Source: Bacteroidota bacterium
Lineage (GTDB): Bacteria; Bacteroidota; Bacteroidia; Bacteroidales; CG2-30-32-10
Reading direction: 5' to 3'
DNA length: 40,757 bases
NCBI GenBank assembly: GCA_013377115.1
Contig: JACAAW010000013.1
Span: 1 to 40,757, forward strand
The notes under the pieces were generated by a model. The model was not told the origin of the DNA, ran no database searches, and saw only the letters and a program-made list of their open reading frames with translations. This document shows, one piece after another, positions 16,494 through 37,577 of this stretch; the first letter of the stretch is position 1, and each line of letters begins with the position of its first letter. Made by a program: the position numbers and the translations under genes.

Positions 16494-18419
16494 TCACCCG
16501 TAAACATTTCTATATCTCACAGTATTATCAAGTGCATCCATTATCTCACGAGTAAAACCAGAAGGTTGTTTTTCGAGGAATTCAGATGAAAATATAATCT
16601 TTTCATCAATTTGATTGAAAACACTTTCGAAGCTCTCTTTTAACTGTTCTTTATGAAAAGCATCAAGATGTTCAAAGGTTTCGCCAAAGCGATCACTAAA
16701 GTCCAAAATGGTATTTAGTACCACTTTATTTATGATTTCCTGATTGGAAGTTTTTTCTCGAACTAAATCAAATGTTTTTTCAATTAATTCTGTTGCATTT
16801 TTTCTGATATTCTCAGAAATTGGAACAATGCAAGAATCCACCTTAATCATTTGTGGGTGATTACGCTCCCAATCAGCCATTTTTCTAGCTTCCAGAGCAT
16901 CATATGCTGACCTTTTGTAATCAATAATATAAAAAGTATAAATAAAAATAATCTTTTGCATCATATGGCCGATATTCTTTTTAAAAGGCTGCATGATTCT
17001 TAAAATATTTTTACGATGCATTCTTTCAGCTTTGAAAAAATAAAAAGACATCACTTTTCCCATTATTTTTCTCATATGCCAAAAAAGATAAATTTTGGAA
17101 TATTTCACTTTAGGTTTATAGGTTATTCCTTTTAGAAAACCAATTGCTCGCTCCGCAAATTTTTCTGGTTGGTAAATTTCATCCCAATAATCAGCCATTC
17201 CTTCAAAAAGCTCAATTCTTGTGATTTGTTTTGGGATTATATTAGAGAGAATATCGACCTTATCATTAGCGTCTGGATTCTCAATTTTAACCAATCTACC
17301 CTGCCTTTTATAATCATACCACATTTTTGTTCCAGGAGGAGCCGCGAGAGGATGACAAATATGAAAAATGATATTGTTTTCCTGAATAAAAGCAGCATTT
17401 TGTTTGAAGGTTTCTTTTGTATCTGAATCTGCACCAATAATCATATGAGCAAGAACCACCATACCATATGACTGTATTTTTTTTATAGAATCGGGAATTG
17501 AAATATTGATATTTTGCTTTTTATTCATGTCTTTCAATGAATCAGGATTAATTGACTCAATACCAATCATTAAAACAGTGAAATTAGCATCTGCAAGCAA
17601 TTTAAGTAGTTCATCGTCATTAGCAATTGTAATATCAAGTTGAGTATAAAAACTAATTGGAACTTTAAAAGAATTATTTAAAACAATGAGTCTTTGCAAA
17701 AGTTCTTTGACATATTTTTTATCACCAGCAAAATTATCGTCGGCAATAAAAACCATATGAACTTTTAAATCATTTAATCTATTTATTTCATCAAGAACTT
17801 GATCGATTGTTTTACTTCGTGGTTTCCTACCATAAGTATAAATCACATCACAAAAGCTACAATCAAATGGACATCCACGGGTGGTTTGGACCGAAACTGA
17901 ATTATATAAATGAATATCATCTTTTATTAATTCCCAGCGCGGCGGTGGCGCTTTTTTCATATCCGGTTTGGTAATATTTTTATAAACCAACTGAAATTCA
18001 CCCTTTTTAAAATCCTCTAAAAATCTTGGCCAAGTTTCTTCGGCCTCTCCATGAAAAACAACATCAATATTTTCTTTATTTTTATGAATAAGCATTTCAA
18101 CACCAATACCTCCAGCTACAATTGTTGAATTTGGGCAATACTTCTTGCACGCTTTTGCAATTTCTAAACTGCGCAATAATTGGTTTGAAGTGAAGGAAAT
18201 CCCAATTATGTCATATTCTTTTCCAATTAAAAGTTGATTTATAGGACCTCGCACATATTCATCATGAATTTCGACTTCATGTTCTCTTGGTGTAAGTGCA
18301 GCGATAGTTGCAACAGCATGCGGTGCAATAAATGCCTTTGACAAAAGGTAAGGAATTTCACGAATAATTTTATTGTCAATCTCGCCGGGGGAACCAGGAC
18401 TGATAAGCAAAATCCTCAT
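16494..18419 (-). CDS. B12-binding-domain radical SAM protein with long helical C-terminus
   Basis: The 641-residue product begins with a Rossmann-like cobalamin-binding domain (about residues 1-140, MRILLISPGSPGEIDNK ... VAGGIGVEMLIHKN), although the classical DxHxxG motif is not evident. The radical SAM core follows, with C183-x3-C187-x2-C190 in TRGCPFDCSFCDVIYTYGRKPR. Residues of about 395-530 resemble the DUF4070 tail of this class, and the last 110 residues are charged helices of unknown family. Such enzymes use SAM with a 4Fe-4S cluster, often to methylate unactivated carbons or rearrange rings in lipids and secondary metabolites. No biosynthetic partner is adjacent, so the substrate is unknown. 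A TAGTTTTG -7-like box lies near 18487-18494 on the minus strand. Confidence 0.85.
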   Translation of the reverse strand: MRILLISPGSPGEIDNKIIREIPYLLSKAFIAPHAVATIAALTPREHEVEIHDEYVRGPINQLLIGKEYDIIGISFTSNQLLRSLEIAKACKKYCPNSTIVAGGIGVEMLIHKNKENIDVVFHGEAEETWPRFLEDFKKGEFQLVYKNITKPDMKKAPPPRWELIKDDIHLYNSVSVQTTRGCPFDCSFCDVIYTYGRKPRSKTIDQVLDEINRLNDLKVHMVFIADDNFAGDKKYVKELLQRLIVLNNSFKVPISFYTQLDITIANDDELLKLLADANFTVLMIGIESINPDSLKDMNKKQNINISIPDSIKKIQSYGMVVLAHMIIGADSDTKETFKQNAAFIQENNIIFHICHPLAAPPGTKMWYDYKRQGRLVKIENPDANDKVDILSNIIPKQITRIELFEGMADYWDEIYQPEKFAERAIGFLKGITYKPKVKYSKIYLFWHMRKIMGKVMSFYFFKAERMHRKNILRIMQPFKKNIGHMMQKIIFIYTFYIIDYKRSAYDALEARKMADWERNHPQMIKVDSCIVPISENIRKNATELIEKTFDLVREKTSNQEIINKVVLNTILDFSDRFGETFEHLDAFHKEQLKESFESVFNQIDEKIIFSSEFLEKQPSGFTREIMDALDNTVRYRNVYG

Positions 18420-20083: not shown

Positions 20084-20683
20084 TTATTGATTACTCAGAA
20101 TATTAATATCGATTATTCTTATTCCTTCATTTATTAATTCCCTCATCACTTTATCCTTGCTTTTTGGCGTTTCTCCAATAATAGCTCCAGGTATCGCATA
20201 CATATCATAACCTAAGTTTTTACCAGCAATTAATGATTTGTATACACATTGCTCAGCCATGAGACCAATAATAATTATTTCTTTAGCATTTTTTTCTTTA
20301 AGAAAGACATTCAGACCTTTACTGGTAAATGTATTGGATTCTTCTTTGGTAAAAATTTGATTGTTTACTATTTTCAGTCTCTTGTCAAAAACCATTGCAG
20401 CTGAATCGTGCGTAACAAAAACAAAAGGATAAGAAAGAGATAGATTTAGTAACTTATGAATACTCTTGATGTAAATTACATTATTTGGATTGGTTTTACT
20501 AATCACATAATTTACTGAATCAATTAATTTTTGTGCAGAACCTTCGGATAGTTTATTGTTTGCATAATATTCTTGAATATCAAGAACAATTAAAAGTTTA
20601 TCCTCAAGTGGTTCCTTTTTTTGAGAAAAGCAAGAAATATAAATTAAGCAAAAAATTGAAATCAAAACTCCGATTCTTTTCAT
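20084..20683 (-). CDS. Exported isochorismatase-like cysteine hydrolase
   Basis: The 199-residue product has the isochorismatase/nicotinamidase fold signature. D35 is in LLIVLDIQEYY, K113 in FTKEESNTF and C146 in LMAEQCVYKS, matching the Asp-Lys-Cys catalytic triad. Members split amides, ureas or isochorismate and are normally cytoplasmic; this one begins with an export signal (MKRIGVLISIFCLIYISCFSQ), either a signal peptide or a lipoprotein signal at Cys18. It is the last gene of a minus-strand run behind the ABC exporter genes, 40 bp after the lumazine-binding-like gene. Its substrate is unknown. No terminator was found after it. Confidence 0.8.
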   Translation of the reverse strand: MKRIGVLISIFCLIYISCFSQKKEPLEDKLLIVLDIQEYYANNKLSEGSAQKLIDSVNYVISKTNPNNVIYIKSIHKLLNLSLSYPFVFVTHDSAAMVFDKRLKIVNNQIFTKEESNTFTSKGLNVFLKEKNAKEIIIIGLMAEQCVYKSLIAGKNLGYDMYAIPGAIIGETPKSKDKVMRELINEGIRIIDINILSNQ

Positions 20684-20723: not shown

Positions 20724-21191
20724 CTATTTGTTCATTTTCATAATTTCTTGATAATTGAACTCCCAAATTGCATTGAGAATTTTCCATTGATTATTTATTC
20801 TCGCTAATTGCAAGTAATCAATATATTCATTGCTTACACATTTTACATTTGCAATGTTTACCCCAATTTCGATTATTGTAATTTTCAAATCGCTTTTTAA
20901 AACCTTGTTCTCCTTTATTAAATTTGGATTTTTGCCAGTCCAATCTATCATTTCAGAATAAGAAGACATCACTAAATCAACACCTTTGCCATCTCTTGAG
21001 GCCAAAACTCCTCTTTTAGCTAAATCTGAATGAAGACTCATTTTTATTCTAGCAGTGTCACCACTATACCATCCTTCAATGTAATCGGCAACAGTTTCCC
21101 GAATAGCCAAACTGTCATTTTTTACTTTTTGAGCGTAGCTATTTATCTGACAGAAATAAATAATCAGAATGAGAAAGGATAGTTTGTTCAT
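20724..21191 (-). CDS. Exported NTF2-like protein (putative lumazine-binding/DUF4440 type)
   Basis: The 155-residue product has a signal peptide (MNKLSFLILIIYFCQINSYAQ) and one NTF2-like cone domain. The pattern 'IRETVADYIEGWYSGDTARIKMSLHSDLAKRGV' followed by strands ending 'YIDYLQLARINNQWKILNAIWEFN' matches the putative lumazine-binding (Lumazine_bd_2/SnoaL-like) group often seen in Bacteroidota. The domain can bind small hydrophobic ligands or act as a simple enzyme; no catalytic residues can be named. It lies 43 bp after the ABC permease gene on the same strand, so it is likely part of the exporter operon. Confidence 0.78.
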   Translation of the reverse strand: MNKLSFLILIIYFCQINSYAQKVKNDSLAIRETVADYIEGWYSGDTARIKMSLHSDLAKRGVLASRDGKGVDLVMSSYSEMIDWTGKNPNLIKENKVLKSDLKITIIEIGVNIANVKCVSNEYIDYLQLARINNQWKILNAIWEFNYQEIMKMNK

Positions 21192-21234: not shown

Positions 21235-23643
21235 TTATTCATATCGTAAATTATCAATTGGATTTTGTTTAGCTGCATTCAAGACCAATATACTTATTGT
21301 AATTCCAGTTAAAAACAAAGCAATAAACAATGGGAAAATAAATAAGCCAATACTTAAATCAATTCGGTTTGCAAATGAATTGAGCCAAATATTTAAAAAA
21401 TAATAGGATATTGGAATGGCGATAATAAAAGAGATTACAATTAACAATAAAAATTCCTTTGCAATTAAAAATAGTAAACCCGAAACATTTGCTCCTAGCA
21501 CTTTTCTCACGCTGATTTCTTTTGTTCTTTGGGTTATCATAAATGAAGCCAATCCGAGGATACCTAAACAAGTAATAAAAATTGCAAGAAAGGAAAAAAT
21601 ACCAAAAATAGTCCCAAACTGCTCATCAGATTTGTATTGTTGATTATAGTATTCATCAACAAAGAAGTAATCGAATGGATTTCCAGGAAAATATTCATTA
21701 TATAAACTTTGAACTGTTGCAATTGTCGTTTCTATGTTTTGTGAATTCAATTTCAATGCAAAGAAGCCACGCGATCCTCTGCCCTTCGTCATCAATCTAT
21801 AAATATGAGGTTCGAAATCTTGTTTTAATGATTGTTGATGATAGTTTTTCATAACACCAACAATTGTAAATATTTCTTCCCAATAGCTTACTTTTTGACC
21901 AATAGCTGATTCAGAATCTTTAAATCCCATCCATTTAACTGCTGTTTCATTTAAAATTAATGAAGCGGTGTCAGTCTTAAAATCTCTTGAAAAATTTCTA
22001 CCAGAAACAAATTTCACATCAAATACATTTGCGAAATCATAATCAATTCCAACAATCTGATAGTTTTTATTTTCAGCAGAACCAACACGATGAATTCCAC
22101 CTGCATCCCATAGGATTTGTCTTCCTGGAACTTCAGTCAATACACAAAACTTGTCCACTTTGGTTTTGCTCAAAATTTCATTTTTAAAAGTCTGAATTTT
22201 ATTTCCAAACATGGAATCTTTTATTCTTGGAGTTCTTATGGCAATCACTTTGTCAATTGAAATTCCAAGATTTTGCTTTTTCATAAATGAAATTTGCCGA
22301 AAAACAGTAATAGTCGCTGTAATTAATACAAGCGACATAATAAACTGAAAAACAACCAGAGCTTTTCGTAAACTTATTCCTTTGGTTGAATTTCCTAATT
22401 TTCCTTTTAAAACAGCAATCGGTTTATATGATGACATCACTAAAATTGGATAAAATCCAGATAAGATAATTCCAGCAAAAAGCATTATTGAAATGGTTTG
22501 CCAAAACCACAAATGACTCCATGAAAAATATGTTGGTGATGTTCCGGTCAAATCACAAAAAACTGGAAGAAGCAATTCAAATAATAAAACAGAAAAAAGA
22601 ACGGCAATTAAATTAATAACGATTGTCTCCAATAAAAACTGAAACATTAATTGAGAACGGTTCGCTCCTACTACTTTTCTTAAACCAACTTCCTTTGCCC
22701 TAGTAAGTGATCTGGCTGTTGATAAATTGATATAATTTACCCATGCAATTATGATAATAAACAAGGCAATAATAAAAAGGATATTAACGGTTTTTTTATC
22801 ACTATTCACTTCGAATTCTTGCATAAAATGGGAATTTAAATGAATATCATTCATGGCCTGAACTTTTAAATCCATTCTTAAATTGAGAGGCTTTAATTCA
22901 GGATTAATCTCTTTGTCCATTATTGCGGCTAATTTCTTTTCAAAAGCATATGGATCAGCTCCTGATTTGAATAAAATATAAGTAAACCAACCAGTATCGC
23001 CCCATGATTGCTCAACTTCGGGTCCAAAATTCTTTAGTAAGTTTTTATAAGACAGAAGAATATCAAATTTAATATGAGAATTGAGCGGAATATCTTCAAA
23101 AATGCCTGTTACTTTGTATTCAACTTTATTGTCCATTTTGAAAGTTTTCCCCATTGGATTTTCGGTCCCAAAATATTTTTTGGCAATGCTTTGTGAAATA
23201 AACGCGCTATTTATTTCATTAATTCCTGAATTAGGATTACCAGAAACAAATTTAAATCTCAGTATTTGTAAGAATTCTGATTCTGCAAAGAACATTTTTT
23301 CTTCAATAAATTTCTTTTCCCCATTTGTTATTGTTCCTGTTGCCCGAAATATTCTTGCAACCTTTTCAACTTCTGGAAATTGATTTCTTATTCTTAAGCC
23401 AGCAGGAGGACAGCATGAAGCAAATTTTACTGCATCACCTTTTTGATCAGTCCTTTCATAGCGTAAACGATAAACTTGTTGATTGTTTTTATGAAATTTA
23501 TCATAACTTTTTTCAAAATTCACATAAAATAAAATGAGCAAACAGGCAGTCATACCAATGGTTAGTCCCAAAATATTTATTATCGAAAAGAGCTTATGTT
23601 TAATGAGGTTTCGGATAATTACCTTAAAATAATTTTTGTACAT
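21235..23643 (-). CDS. ABC exporter permease, MacB/FtsX type with two permease halves
   Basis: The 802-residue product is an FtsX-superfamily permease. It has an N-terminal membrane helix (IINILGLTIGMTACLLILFYV), a periplasmic MacB-like domain (about residues 45-280) and a first set of FtsX helices with GLRKVVGANRSQLMFQFL near residue 325. A second periplasmic domain and a second FtsX set with ISVRKVLGANVSGLLFLIA near residue 715 follow. This two-half form without a fused ATPase is common in Bacteroidota. It acts with the ATPase encoded 25 bp upstream to move a substrate from the periplasm or membrane outward by mechanotransmission. The HlyD-type adaptor encoded beyond the regulators is its probable partner. 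Substrate unknown. Confidence 0.92.
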   Translation of the reverse strand: MYKNYFKVIIRNLIKHKLFSIINILGLTIGMTACLLILFYVNFEKSYDKFHKNNQQVYRLRYERTDQKGDAVKFASCCPPAGLRIRNQFPEVEKVARIFRATGTITNGEKKFIEEKMFFAESEFLQILRFKFVSGNPNSGINEINSAFISQSIAKKYFGTENPMGKTFKMDNKVEYKVTGIFEDIPLNSHIKFDILLSYKNLLKNFGPEVEQSWGDTGWFTYILFKSGADPYAFEKKLAAIMDKEINPELKPLNLRMDLKVQAMNDIHLNSHFMQEFEVNSDKKTVNILFIIALFIIIIAWVNYINLSTARSLTRAKEVGLRKVVGANRSQLMFQFLLETIVINLIAVLFSVLLFELLLPVFCDLTGTSPTYFSWSHLWFWQTISIMLFAGIILSGFYPILVMSSYKPIAVLKGKLGNSTKGISLRKALVVFQFIMSLVLITATITVFRQISFMKKQNLGISIDKVIAIRTPRIKDSMFGNKIQTFKNEILSKTKVDKFCVLTEVPGRQILWDAGGIHRVGSAENKNYQIVGIDYDFANVFDVKFVSGRNFSRDFKTDTASLILNETAVKWMGFKDSESAIGQKVSYWEEIFTIVGVMKNYHQQSLKQDFEPHIYRLMTKGRGSRGFFALKLNSQNIETTIATVQSLYNEYFPGNPFDYFFVDEYYNQQYKSDEQFGTIFGIFSFLAIFITCLGILGLASFMITQRTKEISVRKVLGANVSGLLFLIAKEFLLLIVISFIIAIPISYYFLNIWLNSFANRIDLSIGLFIFPLFIALFLTGITISILVLNAAKQNPIDNLRYE

Positions 23644-23668: not shown

Positions 23669-24346
23669 TTAAGCTTTTATAGTTTCAATTAATATTTGTC
23701 CGTCCAATAATTGAATTATTCTTTTACTGTATTCTGCATCCCTTTGCGAATGGGTAACAATAATCACTGTGGTCCCCTTTTTATTTAGGTCACACAATAA
23801 ATTCATAACTTCTTCACCATTTGTTGAGTCAAGATTTCCTGTTGGCTCATCGGCAAGAATTATTGAAGGATTTGTAACAATAGCTCTTGATACGGCAACT
23901 CTTTGTTGTTGGCCTCCAGAAAGTTGAATCGGAAAATGTTTCTTTCTGTGAAAAATATTCATCTGATCCAAAACTTCTTCAACCCTTCTCTTTCTTTCTT
24001 TGGCGGAAATACCAAGATAAATTAAGGGAAGTTCAACATTTTCAAACACATTTAATTCCTCAATTAAATTAAAACTCTGAAAAACAAAACCAATATTTTG
24101 TTTCCTCAAGGATGATTTTTGTCTTTCATTAAATTTCGAGATTTCCTGTCCTAAAAAATAATATTCACCCATTGTCGGATTGTCTAAAAGCCCAAGAATG
24201 TTTAACAAAGTTGATTTCCCACATCCTGAAGGTCCCATTATAGCAACGAATTCCCCCTTTTTGATTTCAAATTCAATCTGATTTAAAGCGGTAGTTTCTA
24301 CTTCTTCGGTTCTAAATATTTTTGACAGGTTAATTAGCTTAATCAT
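23669..24346 (-). CDS. ABC exporter ATP-binding protein, MacB/LolD type
   Basis: The 225-residue product has Walker [10 protein letters not shown] (38-46), the Q-loop FVFQSFNLI, the ABC signature LSGGQQQR (142-149), Walker [14 protein letters not shown] and the H-loop THS, all standard for the MacB/LolD/FtsE group. It drives the FtsX-type permease whose gene begins 25 bp downstream. The track starts 34 residues earlier at 24448; that extension (MFKIQIVSGNAYFYWTY) does not fit the family. It is also overlapped by a sigma54-type promoter at 24377-24392, so the ATG at 24346 is the real start. Expression is likely to depend on sigma54 and on the NtrC-type regulator encoded upstream. Confidence 0.95.
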
Positions 24347-24376
24347 ATTATTAGTTTTTAAAAGTGGTAATGAGTT

Positions 24377-24392
24377 TTCAATGAATGTGCCA
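24377..24392 (-). promoter_or_regulatory. Sigma54-type (-24/-12) promoter of the ABC exporter genes
   Basis: The minus strand reads TGGCAC-N5-TTGAA against the consensus TGGCAC-N5-TTGCA, one mismatch with exact spacing. The expected initiation point, near 24366, is about 20 nt before the ATG at 24346. Confidence 0.75.
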
Positions 24393-24455
24393 AAACAATA
24401 AGTCCAATAGAAATAGGCATTTCCTGAAACTATTTGAATTTTAAACAATAAAAAC

Positions 24456-24472
24456 TGTAAAATATTTTTACA
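24456..24472. promoter_or_regulatory. Putative upstream activating site (TGT-N11-ACA dyad) for the NtrC-type regulator
   Basis: TGTAAAATATTTTTACA has perfect 7-bp arms (TGTAAAA/TTTTACA). Its centre lies 85 bp upstream of the G of the -12 box of the ABC sigma54 promoter, a typical enhancer distance. A similar dyad at 27280-27296 has the same 85-bp distance to the divergent promoter. Confidence 0.65.
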
Positions 24473-24494
24473 CTTATGTAAATTCTAAAAGAAG

Positions 24495-25853
24495 TTAATT
24501 TCTAAATTTCAAGATAAATGAAGTCCCTGTATTTAAGGATTCTTTTAATGAAATTGTTCCATTATGCATTAACATTATTTGACGTGAAAGACTTAATCCA
24601 ATGCCAGAACCCTTTTCTTTAGTGGTAAAAAATGGAATAAATATATTTTCTACAACTTCCTCAGGAATTCCACTTCCGTTATCATTTATTTCGAAAAAAG
24701 TATTTCCATTTAATGAATAAGACAATATTTCGATTTCTGGATCAATAGTATTTTTTGTTGCCTCCACTGCATTTTGGATTAAATTGATTAAAACCTGTTC
24801 TAAAAGCTTACTATCAGCCCTTATGACAAGGTCATCAGCTGCTTCAATTCTTGTTTTAATATTATTTTCAGAAAAAACATTTTCAAAAAGATGATTGGTT
24901 TTTTCCAAAAAGTCTTTCGCATTAATTTGCCTGAATTCAGGTCTTGGCAATAATGTTAAGCTTCGATATTTTTCAACAAAATGCATCAATCCATTTCCTC
25001 TTTCTTCGATAATCTCAAGGCCTTTTATCACTTTCTCTATTACTGCGGAATCCAGATTTTCAGGGGATACAATTTCAACACCTTCATTTTTCTTAAAAAT
25101 TCGAATCAAACTATTGGTAAGTGAAGTTATTGGTGAAATTGAATTTACAATCTCATGAGTTAAAACACGAATTAGTTTTTGCCAGGATTCAATTTCATTT
25201 TGCTCCAATTCACTTTTAATATTTTGAAATGAAACTAATGACAAATTGGTGTTATTAGTTTTAAAGGTCGTAAGTTTTGCAAGTAATTGTTTCTGTTCCC
25301 CATTTATTAATACAGTAAATATTTTGGGTTCAGAAGGCTTCATTTCAAGCAATTCATCACTGAAATCGGTTTTACAATAATTCAATTTTTCAATATGTTT
25401 TGCAATACCCAGGTTGAATATTTTTTTTGCAGTTTCATTAAAAAGTTCAATATTCCCTTCATTATCGAAAGACATCAACCCCACTCCAATATGATTGACA
25501 ATGGTTTCAAAATATTTATTTTGAATTTCATAATCGGTTTTCGCCTTTTTTAGTTTTTGATTAATCAAATCGAAACTTTGATTTAATGATTTAAATTCAT
25601 CTTTTTTCCAAGATTTCGAATAAATACTGGTATGATCTCCTGCTATTTGGAAATTGAAAAAATTCTCCAATATCCGATTTACTTTATTGATGTAATTTAT
25701 TAATGAAAATATTTGAAACAAAAACAAAATACCAGCAATGATAACTAAAGCAGTGTTTAATGAATTAGCCAAAGCATAGAAGAAAAAACCAGAAAGAGCT
25801 GAAAGGATAATAATTTTAAAAATGATTACCACATAGAATTTTTTATATGCCAT
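24495..25853 (-). CDS. NtrY-like membrane sensor histidine kinase
   Basis: The 452-residue product has two transmembrane helices near residues 8-30 and 33-55 with almost no periplasmic loop, a HAMP-like linker and a PAS domain (about 113-210, IVNHIGVGLMSFDNEGNIELFN). The histidine box is LIRVLTHEIVNS with H233, and the ATPase domain has N-box (NLIQNAVEA), NDNGSGIP and KEKGSGIGLSLSRQ motifs. The architecture is that of NtrY-like kinases. It probably senses something in the membrane or cytoplasm and phosphorylates the NtrC-family regulator whose gene precedes it, overlapping by 11 bp. In this context it would control the MacAB-like exporter. Confidence 0.92.
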   Translation of the reverse strand: MAYKKFYVVIIFKIIILSALSGFFFYALANSLNTALVIIAGILFLFQIFSLINYINKVNRILENFFNFQIAGDHTSIYSKSWKKDEFKSLNQSFDLINQKLKKAKTDYEIQNKYFETIVNHIGVGLMSFDNEGNIELFNETAKKIFNLGIAKHIEKLNYCKTDFSDELLEMKPSEPKIFTVLINGEQKQLLAKLTTFKTNNTNLSLVSFQNIKSELEQNEIESWQKLIRVLTHEIVNSISPITSLTNSLIRIFKKNEGVEIVSPENLDSAVIEKVIKGLEIIEERGNGLMHFVEKYRSLTLLPRPEFRQINAKDFLEKTNHLFENVFSENNIKTRIEAADDLVIRADSKLLEQVLINLIQNAVEATKNTIDPEIEILSYSLNGNTFFEINDNGSGIPEEVVENIFIPFFTTKEKGSGIGLSLSRQIMLMHNGTISLKESLNTGTSFILKFRN

Positions 25854-27216
25854 ATTTTTTCATTTTATTGTAAATAGTTTGCCTTGAAATACCTAGTTCT
25901 TTTGCTGCTTCTGAAAGATTACTATGATTTTTGTTTAAAGCCGAAACAATTGCATCCTTTTCAATATCATCAATAGTTTTTGTTTTAATATTTAGCTTTG
26001 AACTGGATTGATGACTTTTTCTTAATTGCAAATCTTCAGAAATAATGGTATTATTTTCGCATAAGATAACTGCTTTTTCAATTGTATGTTCCAGTTCTCT
26101 GATATTGCCAGGCCATGAATAATCTTTAAGATTTTTCAAAGCTTCAGCGGAAAACTTTTGAACTTTGCTATTGTATTTTGCTGTAAATTTCCTCAAAAAA
26201 TTATTTGCCAAAATTTCGATATCATTTCCTCTTTCTCTGAGAGGAGGCAAATCAATTTGAATGGTATTAATCCTAAATAAAAGATCTTCTCTAAAACTAC
26301 CCTCATCTACCATTTTTTCCAGATTTTTATTAGTTGCTGCAATTAACCAAATATCTATCGGAATACTTTTATTTGAACCCACAGGAGTTATTTTTCTTTC
26401 CTGCAAGGCAGTGAGGATTTTTGCTTGCATCGCCAAAGACAAATTTCCGATTTCATCAAGAAACAAAGTTCCTCCAGAAGCTGATTCAAATCTACCAATT
26501 CTATCTTGTCGTGCATCCGTAAATGAACCTTTTTTATGACCAAACAATTCACTCTCAAATAAGCTTTCACTTAATGAAGCCATATCTACTGTGATCATTG
26601 CCTCTTTTGACCTTGAAGATCGTTTGTGAATTTCTCTTGCAATCATTCCTTTACCAGTTCCATTTTCCCCAGTGATTAAAATACTTGCATCTGTTTTGGA
26701 AACTTTATCAACGATAGAAACAATTTTCTTCATTGCATCGCAATCACTTATCATATCAGGAAAATGACGATCTAATTCAGTTGTAAGATGGTGTTCTCTA
26801 CTTTTTAGCTTTTTGATTTCCAGGTTTGACTCACGCAGTTTCAATCCAGACTTAAGTGTTGCCAATAGTTTATCATTATCCCATGGTTTTAGAATAAAGT
26901 CAATGGCGCCTTCTTTTATAGCTTTTACAGCTAATTCTACATCTCCATAGGCAGTAATTAAAATGACCACAATTGAAGGGTCAATTTTCAGAATTTCTTT
27001 TAACCAATATAAACCTTCATTACCAGAATTTACGCCAGCAGAAAAATTCATATCTAATAAAACAATATCATAATTTCCTGCTTTTAAAGTTGAGTGAATT
27101 TGGTTTGGTGTTTTTAAAGTAGAAACCTGATTGAATTCATCTTCCAGAAAGAATTTGAATGCCTCAATAATTTCCTTATTATCATCAATAATTAAAATAT
27201 TACCCTTTTTATTCAT
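25843..27216 (-). CDS. NtrC-family sigma54-dependent response regulator
   Basis: The 457-residue product has a receiver domain (about 5-122) with D55 as phosphoacceptor (IVLLDMNF) and K110 (ILKPWD). An AAA+ sigma54-activator domain (about 155-390) contains Walker A GENGTGKG (183-190) and Walker B GTLFLDEIG. A C-terminal Fis-type helix-turn-helix is at about 425-457 (NLSEAAKELGISRQTIYNKMKKYGI). The loop that touches sigma54, GAFTGA in proteobacterial proteins, here reads GSFTDA (230-235). It should activate the two nearby sigma54-type promoters when phosphorylated by the kinase encoded just downstream. Its own promoter is of the housekeeping type. Confidence 0.95.
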   Translation of the reverse strand: MNKKGNILIIDDNKEIIEAFKFFLEDEFNQVSTLKTPNQIHSTLKAGNYDIVLLDMNFSAGVNSGNEGLYWLKEILKIDPSIVVILITAYGDVELAVKAIKEGAIDFILKPWDNDKLLATLKSGLKLRESNLEIKKLKSREHHLTTELDRHFPDMISDCDAMKKIVSIVDKVSKTDASILITGENGTGKGMIAREIHKRSSRSKEAMITVDMASLSESLFESELFGHKKGSFTDARQDRIGRFESASGGTLFLDEIGNLSLAMQAKILTALQERKITPVGSNKSIPIDIWLIAATNKNLEKMVDEGSFREDLLFRINTIQIDLPPLRERGNDIEILANNFLRKFTAKYNSKVQKFSAEALKNLKDYSWPGNIRELEHTIEKAVILCENNTIISEDLQLRKSHQSSSKLNIKTKTIDDIEKDAIVSALNKNHSNLSEAAKELGISRQTIYNKMKKYGI

Positions 27217-27253
27217 AAAACAAATTTTTAGAATAATGAAAAACTAAACGATG

Positions 27254-27285
27254 CAAATGTATAACATTTAAAAAAACACTGTCAA
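27254..27285 (-). promoter_or_regulatory. Housekeeping promoter of the regulator-kinase operon
   Basis: On the minus strand TTG, a 21-bp spacer and TACATTTG match the Bacteroidota consensus. Initiation near 27247 gives a leader of about 30 nt. Its -33 TTG lies inside the dyad at 27280-27296, so binding of the regulator there could block this promoter. Confidence 0.6.
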
Positions 27286-27296
27286 AATTATTTACA
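27280..27296. promoter_or_regulatory. Putative upstream activating site (TGT-N11-ACA dyad), adaptor side
   Basis: TGTCAAAATTATTTACA has imperfect dyad symmetry and agrees with the dyad at 24456-24472 at 13 of 17 positions, or 14 when one copy is inverted. It also shares the flanks AC and CTT on the plus strand. Its centre is 85 bp upstream of the G of the -12 box at 27373. Confidence 0.6.
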
Positions 27297-27359
27297 CTTT
27301 TCTTTTAAAAAAAATCAAAAAAACACTCAAATCTCTTTATTCACAAGCATTTTACATTT

Positions 27360-27375
27360 TGGCATTATGGTTGTT
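27360..27375 (+). promoter_or_regulatory. Sigma54-type (-24/-12) promoter of the HlyD-type adaptor gene
   Basis: TGGCAT-N5-TTGTT matches TGGCAC-N5-TTGCA at all but the last C of -24 and the C of the -12 GC plus an allowed final T; spacing is exact. The predicted start near 27386 lies about 27 nt before the ATG at 27413. Confidence 0.65.
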
Positions 27376-27412
27376 TTTAATGTTCCGATTTTAAATATAT
27401 TTTGAGCAATAA

Positions 27413-28663
27413 ATGGATAAAAAAATCATAAAAAAAAGATGGACTATTAAGAAAATAGTTTCGCTTTCGGGCGGAGTTTTAGCCATTTTTTTTGTAATTT
27501 TTTATCTTTTCATCAAAGATTTCAAATCTCAATTATATGTTGACAAATCAAAAATCACGATTTCTACAGTTGAAATGGGAAAATTTCAGGAATTTATTCC
27601 AATCGATGGAATGGTAATGCCAATAAAATCAATTGTGGTGGATATTATCCAGGGAGGTAGAATTGAGAAAATTTTTGTTGAAGATGGAAATCAAATTAAA
27701 GCTGGTGACACCATTCTTAAACTTTCGAATTCAGCAATTGAGTTAGATTACATGCAAAGAGAGACTCAAATGTATGACATCATTAATAATTTGCAAAACA
27801 CCAAATTGAATATTGAACAAAATAAATTTCAAAGAGAAAAAGAAATTGTTGATTTTAGTTATAGTATTGACAAAGCGAAGAAAGATTACGAAAAGAAAAC
27901 AGGATTCTATAAGGAAAAAATTATTTCGACAGTAGAGTTTGAAGATTCGAAAAGAGATTATGAATTACTAATTAAACAAAGGGCAATCGCTATAAAAAGC
28001 CAGAAAAACGATTCACTTTATTATATAAATCAAATAGCACAAATCAAGCTTTCGATCGAAAGACTGTTCAAAAATCTAAGATTATTAAAGGAAAATCTTG
28101 GTAATTTATATTTAAAAGCCCCAGTAAGCGGTCAATTATCTTTGATAGATTGTGAAGTTGGCGAAACAAAAGATCCTGGTCAAAACATTGGCCAAATTGA
28201 TGTTTTAGATGGTTTTAAAATTAGAGCAAAAATTGATGAACGGTATATTTCAAAAGTTTTTTTAAATCAAGAAGCAGAATTAGAATTATCAGAAAAAAGA
28301 TATAAAATCGCCATAAAAAAGATTTACACAAAAGTTTCAAGTGGAAGTTTTGAAACAGATTTTGTATTTATGAATGAAGTGCCGGAGGAAATAAAAAGAG
28401 GACAATCATTATCACTAAAACTTCAATTTAGCAAAGAAACAAATGCAATTGTACTTGCAAAAGGAAGCTTTTATCAAGAAACAGGTGGTAATTGGATTTA
28501 TGTTGTGGATGCTTCAGGAAATTTCGCTTATAAAAAAGACATAAAAATAGGAAGACAAAATACAACCTTATATGAAGTTTTATCAGGATTAAAAAAAGGA
28601 GAAAAAGTAATAACTTCTTCTTATGAGCAATTTGGCAAAAAGGACAAACTTATTTTTAATTAA
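27413..28663 (+). CDS. HlyD/MacA-type periplasmic adaptor of the exporter
   Basis: The 416-residue product is a membrane-fusion (periplasmic adaptor) protein. A single N-terminal anchor helix (about 13-35, VSLSGGVLAIFFVIFYLFI) leads to a lipoyl/barrel-sandwich half-motif (IVVDIIQGGRIEKIFVEDGNQIKAGDTILKL). A long alpha-helical hairpin (about 115-225), the second lipoyl half (LYLKAPVSGQLSLIDCEVGE) and a beta-barrel/membrane-proximal region ending EKVITSSYEQFGKKDKLIFN follow. It would join the FtsX-type permease to an outer-membrane channel, as MacA does for MacB and TolC. No channel gene is in the window. It is transcribed away from the regulators from its own sigma54-type promoter. Confidence 0.92.
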   Translation: MDKKIIKKRWTIKKIVSLSGGVLAIFFVIFYLFIKDFKSQLYVDKSKITISTVEMGKFQEFIPIDGMVMPIKSIVVDIIQGGRIEKIFVEDGNQIKAGDTILKLSNSAIELDYMQRETQMYDIINNLQNTKLNIEQNKFQREKEIVDFSYSIDKAKKDYEKKTGFYKEKIISTVEFEDSKRDYELLIKQRAIAIKSQKNDSLYYINQIAQIKLSIERLFKNLRLLKENLGNLYLKAPVSGQLSLIDCEVGETKDPGQNIGQIDVLDGFKIRAKIDERYISKVFLNQEAELELSEKRYKIAIKKIYTKVSSGSFETDFVFMNEVPEEIKRGQSLSLKLQFSKETNAIVLAKGSFYQETGGNWIYVVDASGNFAYKKDIKIGRQNTTLYEVLSGLKKGEKVITSSYEQFGKKDKLIFN

Positions 28664-33514: not shown

Positions 33515-33588
33515 TTGCAAACAAACTGATTTTACAGTTATTGTTTAAGATAAATTACAACAAGTTCTTTCCACTAAATTTCAATACA

Positions 33589-35499
33589 ATGAAGAATTTC
33601 ATTTTGCCAATTTTGCTTTTTCTAGCAGTATCATTGCAAGCTAAGGACATTGATTTAAAAACAACTATTACAGAGGTAACGGTTTTCCAAAGTGGTGCTC
33701 AAGTGAAGCGAATTGGAACCACTATTATTCCTGCTGGTGAATATAACATCGTTATTCGCGATGCAACGTCGCAATTAAAAAAAGAAAGCATTCAAGTTAA
33801 AGGTGACGGGAATTTCACAATACTTTCGGTAAACCACCAAATCAATTTGGGAAATCAAAACCAGGACAAAGCTAAATGGCTTGAACTTGAAGCAAAAGAA
33901 AAGGATCTAAAACGTAAAATGGAAGATATTTCCATTAAAATTGAAGTTCTTAGAACTGAAGAAGCAGTCATAAATAACCTTCAAAATATTAGTACAACAA
34001 CTGAAGGAGTCACTGTTGAGCAAGTTTCAAAAGCTCAGGATTTATTAAAAGTAAAACTCACTCTTATTAAGAACGAAAAACTGATTGCAAGCCGACAAAT
34101 GAAAGAGTTTTATGATGCACATCAAAGTGTGACCCAACAATTAAGCGCTTTAAAAACTCCAAAACAAAACATTAACTATGAAATTGTCATTAAAGTTAAA
34201 GCCAAAGCAGAGACCAATGCAAATTTCATTGTAACTTATATTGTTCCGAATGCAAATTGGTTTCCAACTTATGATTTGCGCGTAAAAACAATTGCAGAAC
34301 CAATGGTGATTGACTACAAAGCAAACGTTTCTCAGCAATCTGGAGAGGATTGGAACAATGTTAAATTGAAACTTTCAACTGGAGATCCTTCCCTTTCATC
34401 TGAAAAACCAAAAGTTGAAACTTGGTTGTTGTATTTAAATCAACCTTATATTCAACCTCAGAAAAAATCAAATTTTTACCGTTATACGGATGTTAAATTC
34501 ACCAAACTAAAAGGAACCATTTTAGATAAATCAACTGGCGAGCCACTACCCTTTTGCTCCATAATGGTTGAAGGAACAAATATTGGAACCAGCTCGGACC
34601 TTGATGGTAATTTCAATTTGGTATTACCCGAAAATGCAAGAAACATTAAAGTGGCTTATATTGGTTACGAGCAGCAAATTCTTCCTATTAAAAATGAAGA
34701 AATGAAAATCTATCTTGAATCATCTCAAGTTAGCCTAAATGAAGTTGTCATTGCAAATTATTCTTCTGGTCAGGAATATGAGAAAGATGAATGGAAAGAA
34801 GATAAGAGAAAAACGAGTATTAGTTCAAGTTATACTGAAAATAAAAATCAAAAAACGGCTACTAATAATACCGTTACTCAAACATTAAACATTGTGAATA
34901 CGGAATTTAATATCGAAGAAAAATACTCAATTATCTCCAATCCCAAAAGTATAACTGTTGCGATTCAAACATTTCAAACAAAAGCCAATTATCAATATTA
35001 TTGTGCGCCACGTTTAGATAAAGATGTTTTCCTTACAGCTCAAATTGTTGATTGGGAAAAGTATAACTTAATTGAAGGACAGGGAAATATATTTTTCGAA
35101 GGGACCTTTGTTGGAAATACCTTACTCGATACAAGATATATTACAGATACGCTTGAAATTTCATTAGGAAGAGATAAAAGCGTTAAAGTGGATCGCAAAA
35201 AGTCTAAGGAGTTTAACAAACATACTTTTTTTGGTGGAGAAAATATTGCATATCGTGAATGGGATATTGCTGTAAAAAATGGAAAGCAACAAAACGTTGA
35301 TATTATTATCGAGGACCAATTTCCAATTGCTGCTGACAGCAAAATAGTTGTAAAACAAGAAGAAAAAAGTGGAGGAAAGCTTGATGAAAAAACTGGAATT
35401 GTATCTTGGCAATACCTACTTGAACCAAATGGTATTAAAACAATGCAGTTAAAATATTCTGCTAAATTTCCAAAAGGAAGTTTTATTGGTTTAGATTAA
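33589..35499 (+). CDS. DUF4139 (MuiA-like) exported protein with inserted carboxypeptidase-regulatory-like domain, copy 1
   Basis: The product has 636 residues from the ATG at 33589; the track begins at a TTG 16 codons earlier, before the signal peptide (MKNFILPILLFLAVSLQAK), which is unlikely. An N-terminal DUF4140 strand region (TEVTVFQSGAQVKRIG) leads into a coiled coil (about 90-190) and the start of DUF4139 (NWFPTYDLRV). A carboxypeptidase-regulatory-like domain (about 305-385, LKGTILDKSTGEPLPFCSIM) is inserted, then a variable linker, and DUF4139 resumes to the end (DQFPIAADSKIVV ... KYSAKFPKGSFIGLD). The family was named for a mucoidy-inhibitor homologue; its biochemical role is unknown. 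A paralogue follows 41 bp downstream. Confidence 0.87.
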   Translation: MKNFILPILLFLAVSLQAKDIDLKTTITEVTVFQSGAQVKRIGTTIIPAGEYNIVIRDATSQLKKESIQVKGDGNFTILSVNHQINLGNQNQDKAKWLELEAKEKDLKRKMEDISIKIEVLRTEEAVINNLQNISTTTEGVTVEQVSKAQDLLKVKLTLIKNEKLIASRQMKEFYDAHQSVTQQLSALKTPKQNINYEIVIKVKAKAETNANFIVTYIVPNANWFPTYDLRVKTIAEPMVIDYKANVSQQSGEDWNNVKLKLSTGDPSLSSEKPKVETWLLYLNQPYIQPQKKSNFYRYTDVKFTKLKGTILDKSTGEPLPFCSIMVEGTNIGTSSDLDGNFNLVLPENARNIKVAYIGYEQQILPIKNEEMKIYLESSQVSLNEVVIANYSSGQEYEKDEWKEDKRKTSISSSYTENKNQKTATNNTVTQTLNIVNTEFNIEEKYSIISNPKSITVAIQTFQTKANYQYYCAPRLDKDVFLTAQIVDWEKYNLIEGQGNIFFEGTFVGNTLLDTRYITDTLEISLGRDKSVKVDRKKSKEFNKHTFFGGENIAYREWDIAVKNGKQQNVDIIIEDQFPIAADSKIVVKQEEKSGGKLDEKTGIVSWQYLLEPNGIKTMQLKYSAKFPKGSFIGLD

Positions 35500-35540
35500 A
35501 AAAATAATTTCAAAATTGTAAAGCATTAAATAATAAAGAT

Positions 35541-37577
35541 ATGAGAGCAATTCTTCTAATTCTATTTTTTATTTCAATTCAAGTAAGCGCAAAAGATATT
35601 GATTTAAAAACAACAATAACCGATGTCACTGTATTTCAAAGTGGCGCTCAAGTGAAGCGAATCGGTTCTACTAAAATTCCAGCTGGTGAATCACAAATAA
35701 TTATTTCTGATGCCACTTCACTATTAAAAAAAGAAAGCATTCAGGTTAAAGGTGAAGGCGATTTTACAATTCTTTCAGTTAATTTTCAAGCAAAATTAGA
35801 AGATGTTGAAAATGAAAAAGGAAAGTGGGCAGACTTGGAACTTAAACAAAAGAGTTTAATGCAGCAAATGGAGGATTTGAGTGTAAAAATTCAAACTTTA
35901 AATTCTCAAGAAGCTGCAATTATGAATCTTAAAGACATTTCCACAACTACAAAAGGTGTAACTGTTGAACAAATTGGAAAAGCTCAAGAATTGGTTAGAC
36001 TAAAATTAACTGAAATAAAGACCGAAAAGTTGAAATTTTCGAGACAAATTTTAGACCTTTTTGAAGATCATAAAACGATAACCCAGCATTTGGTAGCATT
36101 AAAAACTCCGAAACAAAAAATTCATTACGAAATAGTTGTAAAAGTGTCAGCATTAACAGCTGTTTTAGCTGACTTTATAATTAGCTATATTGTTCCAAAT
36201 GCACAATGGTTTCCAACTTATGACTTACGTGTAAACAGCGTAACCGAGCCAATGCTAATTGAATATAAAGCAAATGTATCCCAGGAGAGCGGCGAAGATT
36301 GGACCAATGTTAGTTTAAAATTATCAACTGGAGACCCTTCGCAATCTCCCCAAAAACCCAAAATTGATCCTTGGTGGTTGTATTTAAATCAAGGGTATGT
36401 TCAACCTCAAAAACAAAACAATTTCTATAAATATACTGATATTAGATTTACAAAAGTAAATGGAACTATTATAAATGCTGAATCAGGTGAGCCAATCCCT
36501 TGGTGTAATATTATTGTATCTGGAACAAATATAGGAACAACTGCTGATGCAGAAGGAAGTTTCTCTTTGGTTTTGCCAGAAAATGCCAAGCAACTTTATT
36601 TCTATTCTATTGGTTTTATCGCGCAAACCATTGCTATTTCTGAGAAGAATCCAACCATTAAACTCCAAAAACAAGAAATGCCTTTAAATGAAACTGTAAA
36701 AACAGATTATGAAAGAGCATTGATGAATGTTCAATCACCTGTTTTTAGTACTGATTATGAAGGAGTACTTTCAAATCTCGAAGTTCCAGTGATATCAAAC
36801 TACGATCTTATGGTAATGGATGCAAATGGTGCAAGTGTGGGATACGCAACTGGTGCAGGACCAGGAACTTATTCATACAATATATCTGATAATAAATCAG
36901 TTAATTATTTAAGTAGTGAAATTAAACAAATCGATGCCAAAAAAATTGTGGCAACTAAAACACTAAATATTGTAAGTACTGAATTCTCAATTGATGAGAA
37001 ATACACCATCCCTTCCGATCCAAAGAAAATTACGGTTTCAATACAAAGCATCAAAACTGACGCAAAATATCAATATTATTGTGCCCCAAGATTTGATAAA
37101 GATGTATTTATTACTGCTCAATTAACAAATTGGGAGCAATATAATCTTTTGGAAGGGCAAGCAAATGTTTTTTTTGAAGAAACATTCACGGGGAGTACTT
37201 TTTTTGATACCCGTTTCCTAGTCGACACTTTAGAAATTTCTTTGGGAAGGGATAAAGGAATAAAAGTAGAGCGCAAAAAATCAAAAGAATTTAATAAAAG
37301 TCAGGTTGTTGGAAACGACAATATTGCTTATCGCGATTGGGATATTTCAGTTTATAATTCAAAACCACAGCCAATTGATATTATTGTTGAGGACCAATTT
37401 CCGGTTTCAGTAGATAGTAAAGTCGTTGTATCTCAAGAAGAAAAAAGCAATGGTGTATTAAACGAAACTACAGGAATAGTAAGCTGGCCATTTAAACTCA
37501 ATCCTTCAGAAACAAAGAAACTTCAGCTAAAATATAAAGTAAAATATCCAAAAGGAAATTATATTGGATTAGATTAA
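35541..37577 (+). CDS. DUF4139 (MuiA-like) exported protein, copy 2 of a tandem pair
   Basis: The 678-residue product is a close paralogue of the preceding protein, with the same order of parts. These are a signal peptide (MRAILLILFFISIQVSAK), DUF4140 (DVTVFQSGAQVKRIGSTK), a coiled coil, split DUF4139 and an inserted carboxypeptidase-regulatory-like domain (about 303-380, VNGTIINAESGEPIPWCNII). The largest difference is the linker after that domain, which is longer here and contains a Gly-rich stretch (GASVGYATGAGPGTYSYNIS) absent from copy 1. Both end '...KYPKGNYIGLD'-like. The pair clearly arose by tandem duplication and is probably cotranscribed. Function unknown; a periplasmic or surface beta-structured protein is likely. 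Confidence 0.87.
   Translation: MRAILLILFFISIQVSAKDIDLKTTITDVTVFQSGAQVKRIGSTKIPAGESQIIISDATSLLKKESIQVKGEGDFTILSVNFQAKLEDVENEKGKWADLELKQKSLMQQMEDLSVKIQTLNSQEAAIMNLKDISTTTKGVTVEQIGKAQELVRLKLTEIKTEKLKFSRQILDLFEDHKTITQHLVALKTPKQKIHYEIVVKVSALTAVLADFIISYIVPNAQWFPTYDLRVNSVTEPMLIEYKANVSQESGEDWTNVSLKLSTGDPSQSPQKPKIDPWWLYLNQGYVQPQKQNNFYKYTDIRFTKVNGTIINAESGEPIPWCNIIVSGTNIGTTADAEGSFSLVLPENAKQLYFYSIGFIAQTIAISEKNPTIKLQKQEMPLNETVKTDYERALMNVQSPVFSTDYEGVLSNLEVPVISNYDLMVMDANGASVGYATGAGPGTYSYNISDNKSVNYLSSEIKQIDAKKIVATKTLNIVSTEFSIDEKYTIPSDPKKITVSIQSIKTDAKYQYYCAPRFDKDVFITAQLTNWEQYNLLEGQANVFFEETFTGSTFFDTRFLVDTLEISLGRDKGIKVERKKSKEFNKSQVVGNDNIAYRDWDISVYNSKPQPIDIIVEDQFPVSVDSKVVVSQEEKSNGVLNETTGIVSWPFKLNPSETKKLQLKYKVKYPKGNYIGLD

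What the first reader, a model, noticed from the sequence alone, without database searches (positions are those of the whole stretch)
24346..27413. Divergent sigma54 promoters with matched enhancer dyads controlling a MacAB-like exporter
Seen: TGGCAC-N5-TTGAA faces the ABC ATPase (24377-24392, minus) and TGGCAT-N5-TTGTT faces the adaptor (27360-27375, plus). Each has a TGT-N11-ACA dyad (24456-24472 and 27280-27296) whose centre is exactly 85 bp upstream of the -12 G. An NtrC-type regulator and NtrY-like kinase are encoded between them. Known: sigma54 promoters need NtrC-type activators bound about 100 bp upstream. Inference: one two-component system turns on all exporter parts together, in both directions, using a shared operator TGTnAAAnnnnTTTACA.
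Basis: partly seen in the sequence, partly recalled or inferred. Interest (0 to 1): 0.8.

Follow-up and report, generated by a model that had tools for sequence, protein, structure and literature searches.

The report
Rewired sigma54 switch for split exporter
In a Bacteroidota bacterium, a sensor-regulator gene pair sits between two halves of a membrane export pump, and each half starts with a matching regulator-binding site plus sigma54 promoter; relatives show that the site is real and suggest that this pump has changed regulators.

Summary
In the 4.0-Mb genome the combined motif (TGT-N11-ACA, 50-80 bp, TGGCAN6TTG) occurs only at these two places. A weight matrix built only from other genomes ranks these two dyads as the best two sites in the window.

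In relatives, regulators with the same recognition helix (RQTxYNK) have TGT-N11-ACA sites upstream of a divergent -24/-12 (29 of 42, window included; shuffles 0.2).

Two corrections. The exporter is nearer to darobactin-type DarBCD/ADOP exporters than to MacAB. And the exporter's orthologues normally carry another operator, TGT-N10-ACA (21 of 27; none has N11), beside regulators with another helix (RASLYRR). The window's regulator and kinase instead resemble those of radical-SAM peptide (RiPP) clusters.

So the best reading is an exporter rewired to a new two-component system, with the new operator at both halves. Sigma54 control of FtsX-type permeases in Bacteroidia was already predicted (PMC12316311). 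The operator, its link to the helix and the regulator exchange were not found described. Nothing here is experimental.

The parts
27360..27375 (+). sigma54-type -24/-12 promoter facing the adaptor (TGGCATTATGGTTGTT)
   Evidence: divergent -24/-12 recurs beside homologous regulators
27280..27296 (+). operator TGTCAAAATTATTTACA, centre 85 bp upstream of the -12 G
   Evidence: second-best site in the window by a matrix from other genomes, score 24.0
27258..27274 (+). possible weak second operator (TGT-N11-AAA), centre 107 bp upstream of the -12 G, 22 bp from the first
   Evidence: second-best site of this region, score -0.4, within the top ~0.1% of window positions; the spacing matches tandem pairs in relatives
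24377..24392 (-). sigma54-type -24/-12 promoter facing the ABC ATPase (TGGCACATTCATTGAA)
24456..24472 (-). operator TGTAAAAATATTTTACA, centre 85 bp upstream of the -12 G
   Evidence: best site in the window, score 26.4
25843..27216 (-). NtrC-type response regulator (receiver, AAA+ with GSFTDA loop, Fis-type HTH)
   Evidence: Pfam Response_reg, Sigma54_activat, HTH_8; loop motif
25846..25887 (-). end of the HTH with recognition helix SRQTIYNK (residues 444-457)
   Evidence: translation; RQTxYNK goes with TGT-N11-ACA in relatives
24495..25853 (-). membrane sensor histidine kinase, NtrY-like H-box LTHEIVN, overlaps the regulator gene
   Evidence: HATPase_c; H-box motif
23669..24349 (-). ABC ATPase (DarD/LolD type); start corrected to ATG 24349
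21235..23643 (-). duplicated permease (two MacB_PCD, two FtsX stretches; ADOP/DarB type)
20724..21191 (-). lumazine-binding-like (NTF2-like) secreted protein, 43 bp after the permease, probably the same operon
   Evidence: and spacing; no homologue found in the other loci
20084..20683 (-). isochorismatase-like protein, last gene of the putative operon
   Evidence: and spacing
27413..28663 (+). periplasmic adaptor (HlyD/DarC type)
   Evidence: orthologues 47-55% identical

Best explanation
This is a locally acting sigma54 switch for a tripartite-type ABC exporter. The membrane kinase (24495-25853) senses an envelope or extracellular signal and phosphorylates the NtrC-type regulator (25843-27216). 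The regulator binds TGTnAAAnnnnTTTACA dyads about 97 bp upstream of both start sites and drives RNA polymerase-sigma54 to open the adaptor promoter (27360) and the ATPase-permease promoter (24392), so the two halves of the exporter, split to either side of the regulator genes, are made together. Shown by sequence: promoters, operators, positions, gene families, and coupling of operator type to regulator subfamily. Inferred: phosphorylation, binding, activation, signal and substrate (probably a peptide or other amphiphile, or self-protection from one). Evolution (inferred): the exporter belongs to a lineage normally run by a RASLYRR-type regulator through 16-bp TGT-N10-ACA operators; here that system has been replaced by an RQTIYNK-type system, and both promoters carry the 17-bp operator of the new regulator.
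For: Combined motif only at this locus genome-wide. Operator matrix from other genomes ranks these two sites first. Divergent -24/-12 at top score beside 24 of 116 regulator homologues, none facing the regulator, under 1% in shuffles. TGT-N11-ACA in 29/42 RQTxYNK and 0/43 RASLYRR loci; TGT-N10-ACA 0/42 and 16/43. Helical phasing R = 0.76 and 21-23 bp tandem spacing. sigma54 gene with RpoN box ARRTIAKYR in the same genome. Closest regulator relative (G104, 63%) also has a second operator-matched -24/-12, ahead of a peptide-precursor operon that contains the ABC ATPase and an FtsX permease; G105/G288 and G350 also have two matched promoters in one stretch. Exporter orthologues: 21/27 have TGT-N10-ACA + -24/-12, none N11. 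Adaptor tree puts the window in a 44-row clade whose 7 classed neighbours are all RASLYRR; the regulator tree puts it with 9 RQT/RPT rows. Own genome has no RASLYRR regulator among its matches and no 16-bp operator + TGGCAY.
Against: No experiment. The -12 elements lack the canonical C. RQT and RAS classes differ by a single change on the regulator tree, so the helix-operator link is a clade-level contrast and the Fisher p value is inflated. 13 of 42 RQT loci lack the site as defined. The minus promoter has no convincing second operator. No same-genus genome was held, so the split order rests on one assembly of 296 contigs. Trees are FastTree only. The kinase-regulator pairing is inferred from adjacency.
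Confidence: 0.83

Rival explanations
1. Only the plus promoter is a regulator-controlled sigma54 promoter; the minus -24/-12 and dyad downstream of the kinase are a chance match, and the ATPase-permease genes are read through from the regulator-kinase transcript.
For: ABC follows the kinase on the same strand; no terminator-like site was called in between; no convincing second operator there.
Against: The minus dyad is the best operator in the window by an outside matrix (26.4) and the combined motif has about 1 control hit per 4 Mb. The predicted start site lies 18 nt from the ATPase start codon.
Confidence: 0.08
2. The dyads bind this regulator, but as a repressor or autoregulator of its own genes from a housekeeping promoter, while the exporter uses another promoter.
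For: A sigma70-like site facing the regulator overlaps the 27280-27296 dyad (TTGACA-18-TACATT, 27285-27256; TTG-N21-TACATTTG).
Against: The minus operator is not near any regulator promoter. Operators keep helical phase with -24/-12 elements that point away from the regulator. Sigma70-like matches are as frequent as in shuffles. Autoregulation could coexist with activation.
Confidence: 0.06
3. No regulator exchange: the window's regulator is the old partner of this exporter and diverged in place together with its operators, or the locus is a misassembly. (This rival concerns the evolutionary part only and is compatible with the switch itself.)
For: One assembly only; trees are FastTree; the window adaptor is the earliest branch of its clade.
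Against: Regulator (63%) and kinase (45%) are nearest to RiPP-cluster systems, while ATPase (80%) and adaptor (55%) are nearest to exporters beside RASLYRR regulators; both operators match the window's regulator, which a random join would not give.
Confidence: 0.3

Closest known systems
Predicted sigma54 control of FtsX-type 'antimicrobial peptide' permeases (COG0577) in Bacteroidia (PMC12316311, 2025)
   Same: Same kind of promoter in front of the same broad class of permease in the same class of bacteria, predicted from -24/-12 matrices
   Different: In the passages searched no regulator, operator, spacing or two-component pairing for these exporters was seen; no rewiring
NtrC-family regulators (AtoC, ZraR, NtrC, the XrtA/PEP-CTERM regulator) with sigma54
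   Same: Receiver, AAA+, Fis-type HTH; distant upstream dyads in helical phase with -24/-12
   Different: Scores below every NCBIfam equivalog cut-off shown; operator TGTnAAAnnnnTTTACA; GSFTDA instead of GAFTGA, as GxFTDA is common in this family
NifA upstream sites TGT-N10-ACA (from general knowledge)
   Same: Same half-sites TGT/ACA; the RASLYRR regulators here use N10 spacing
   Different: The window's regulators use N11 and an A/T-rich core; no nif context
DarBCD darobactin exporter
   Same: Best NCBIfam match for the ATPase (DarD) and adaptor (DarC), second for the permease (DarB); same three-part layout
   Different: All below curated cut-offs; no darA precursor or DarE was identified in this window
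MacAB-TolC
   Same: MacB_PCD and FtsX domains; weak PDB match to MacB
   Different: Separate ATPase and a duplicated ~800-residue permease; adaptor matches MacA at 24.7 bits against a cut-off of 342

Membership tests
sigma54-dependent NtrC-type activator | receiver + AAA+ (Sigma54_activat) + Fis-type HTH | tested here: met
   PF00072, PF00158, PF02954 all above cut-off
sigma54-dependent NtrC-type activator | GAFTGA-type sigma54 contact loop | tested here: met
   variant GSFTDA; GxFTDA is the commonest form among homologues; activity of the variant not testable here
sigma54-dependent promoter | TGGCA at -24 and TTGC at -12, GG-N10-GC spacing | tested here: inconclusive
   -24 and spacing met; the C of the -12 GC is A or T, as also seen in many relatives
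sigma54-dependent promoter | sigma54 gene in the genome | tested here: met
   PF04552 178.8 bits; RpoN box present; N-terminal half lies beyond the contig edge
sigma54-dependent promoter | transcription lost without sigma54 | not testable with these tools
   needs a mutant
MacAB exporter | ATPase fused to a four-helix permease; MacA-type adaptor | tested here: not met
   separate genes, duplicated permease
DarBCD exporter | NCBIfam DarB, DarC, DarD above cut-off | tested here: not met
   157/700, 195/450 and 291/375 bits
ADOP duplicated permease (TIGR03434) | score above cut-off | tested here: not met
   242.6 against 622.3 bits, though full-length
RQTxYNK/TGT-N11-ACA regulator subfamily (defined here) | recognition helix RQTxYNK and TGT-N11-ACA 60-125 bp upstream of a -24/-12 | tested here: met
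   both features in the window, the matrix made without it

The most novel reading that the evidence does not exclude
Natural regulator replacement at a sigma54-controlled exporter: an RQTIYNK two-component system, otherwise nearest to systems of RiPP clusters, has taken over an exporter whose orthologues are run by RASLYRR regulators, and both exporter promoters carry a 17-bp TGT-N11-ACA operator in place of the 16-bp TGT-N10-ACA operator of the orthologues, while the -24/-12 promoter type is kept.
Probability: 0.6. Interest if true: 0.62.

Novelty: new variant of a known kind. Interest (0 to 1): 0.52.

Why it matters
Sigma54 regulons in Bacteroidota are largely uncharted. This gives a testable operator for a widespread regulator family, ties a one-base change in operator length to a recognition-helix change, and offers a clear case where a pump kept its promoter type but changed its master. 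It also links the closest regulators to radical-SAM peptide clusters, giving a handle for finding out when such clusters are switched on in these bacteria.

Tried and rejected
Each motif alone in the window: at chance level. Exact 85 bp as a conserved rule: rejected, phase is what is kept. A second tandem operator at the minus promoter: not convincing (106 bp site scores -12.1). A wider regulon in the same genome: the four other exact dyads have no good -24/-12. Homologues of the lumazine-binding, isochorismatase and DUF5916 genes in the fetched loci: none found. Independent-pairs test of helix against operator: only one independent change, no power. Literature for the operator, RteB with sigma54, or a RiPP-sigma54-FtsX link: nothing found.

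Full report
CHECK. Together they are not: TGT-N11-ACA-N50..80-TGGCAN6TTG has two matches in the 4.02-Mb genome, both here, with one match of the reversed control pattern. The ATPase must start at ATG 24349, not at the TTG of the longest ORF, which lies upstream of the promoter. The genome has one sigma54 gene match, with the RpoN box ARRTIAKYR; its N-terminal half is off the contig edge.

GENES. The regulator has receiver, AAA+ and Fis-type HTH domains and a GSFTDA loop (GAFTDA is commonest in the family); the kinase has an NtrY-like H-box. The exporter is a separate ATPase, a duplicated MacB_PCD/FtsX permease and an HlyD-type adaptor. NCBIfam places them nearest to DarD, ADOP/DarB and DarC of the darobactin exporter, all below cut-off, and MacA/MacB lower. 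TolC-type genes exist elsewhere in the genome; none was seen in the window's exporter locus.

RELATIVES OF THE REGULATOR. About 120 non-redundant homologous loci, mostly Bacteroidota, were read. At the strictest score, a -24/-12 pointing away from the regulator occurs beside 24 of 116 homologues and never toward it; shuffles give under 1%. In 36 loci, 67 TGT-N11-ACA sites lie 75-117 bp from the -12 G in clusters about 10.8 bp apart (R = 0.76), and neighbouring sites are always 21-23 bp apart. So operators sit on one face of the helix, often in tandem. The window's 85 bp is one of these registers. A matrix from 50 such sites, window excluded, gives TGTnAAAnnnnTTTACA and ranks the two reported dyads first in the window.

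HELIX AND OPERATOR. Regulators with recognition helix RQTxYNK (the window's type) have N11 dyads (29 of 42; shuffle 0.2) and never N10. Regulators with R[AS][SA]LYRR have N10 dyads of the form TGTTCG..CGAACA (16 of 43; shuffle 0.0) and never N11. This supports the dyad as the binding site of this regulator. Caution: on the tree this is a single class change, so the Fisher value of 1e-12 overstates the evidence.

TWO PROMOTERS, ONE REGULATOR. The closest regulator relative with enough sequence (G104, 63%) has one operator-matched promoter divergent from the regulator and a second ahead of an operon of a 71-residue GG-leader precursor (TIGR04149, below cut-off), a radical SAM maturase (TIGR04148, above), a pseudo-rSAM protein (TIGR04150, above), an FtsX permease, a peptidase-containing ABC transporter and the ATPase. 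G105 and G288 (near-copies) and G350 also show two matched promoters in one stretch. Dual matched promoters therefore recur, though with other gene orders; no other locus with the window's split order was seen.

REWIRING. The window's adaptor and ATPase are closest to exporters lying beside RASLYRR regulators (55% and 80%); its regulator and kinase are closest to the RiPP-linked systems (63% and 45%). Trees agree: adaptor in a 44-row clade (support 100) whose 7 classed neighbours are all RASLYRR; regulator in a 10-row RQT/RPT clade (99) (FastTree). Of 27 adaptor orthologues, 21 carry TGT-N10-ACA upstream of a -24/-12, mostly at 106.5-107.5 bp, and none carries N11; the window alone has N11. 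The 16-bp operator is there even in orthologues with no regulator gene adjacent. The window's genome shows no RASLYRR regulator and no 16-bp operator with TGGCAY. The simplest reading is replacement of the regulator, with new operators at both exporter promoters.

MECHANISM. Shown: architecture and its conservation. From established knowledge of NtrC-type activators: phosphorylated hexamers on distant sites remodel sigma54 holoenzyme. Inferred: the neighbouring kinase is the partner; signal and substrate concern envelope-active peptides, from the DarBCD resemblance and the RiPP context of the nearest regulators. A sigma70-like site facing the regulator overlaps the plus operator, so autoregulation is possible but unproven.

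PRIOR ART. Sigma54 control of FtsX-type permeases in Bacteroidia was predicted in 2025 as first evidence (PMC12316311). Francke et al. 2011 link sigma54 to the cell exterior (PMC3162934). No paper on this operator was found in the held library, which lacks most subscription journals.

Noticed in passing
L217 (G104:C14 22000-40000), 4823 to 1, minus strand: An operator-matched sigma54 promoter heads a radical-SAM peptide (TIGR04148/4149/4150) operon in the closest regulator relative: probably a two-component-controlled RiPP cluster.
   Followed up: partly
L203, L204, L208, L210-L212, L214, intergenic regions between adaptor and regulator: A second operator class, TGTTCGTANNTGTACA (16 bp), with -24/-12 of the form TGGCAY-N5-TAG/TTG, for RASLYRR regulators.
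   Followed up: yes
L197 (G350:C11 14000-33000), 7511 and 11655, minus strand: Two operator-matched sigma54 promoters each precede a ~765-residue secreted protein that looks like an outer-membrane beta-barrel, so the regulon may reach beyond exporters.
   Followed up: no
genome G109: 15 matches to the combined motif against 0 control, suggesting a large regulon of this kind in one genome.
   Followed up: no
window 33541-37577, plus strand: Two tandem paralogous proteins (652 and 678 aa) sharing a secreted-protein layout with what looks like an inserted carboxypeptidase-regulatory-like domain.
   Followed up: no
window 16494-18419, minus strand: A 641-residue protein that reads like a B12-binding radical SAM enzyme, about 1.7 kb beyond the end of the putative exporter operon.
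   Followed up: no
window 27256-27285, minus strand: Sigma70-like promoter facing the regulator (TTGACA-18-TACATT) overlaps the plus-side operator; possible autoregulation.
   Followed up: partly
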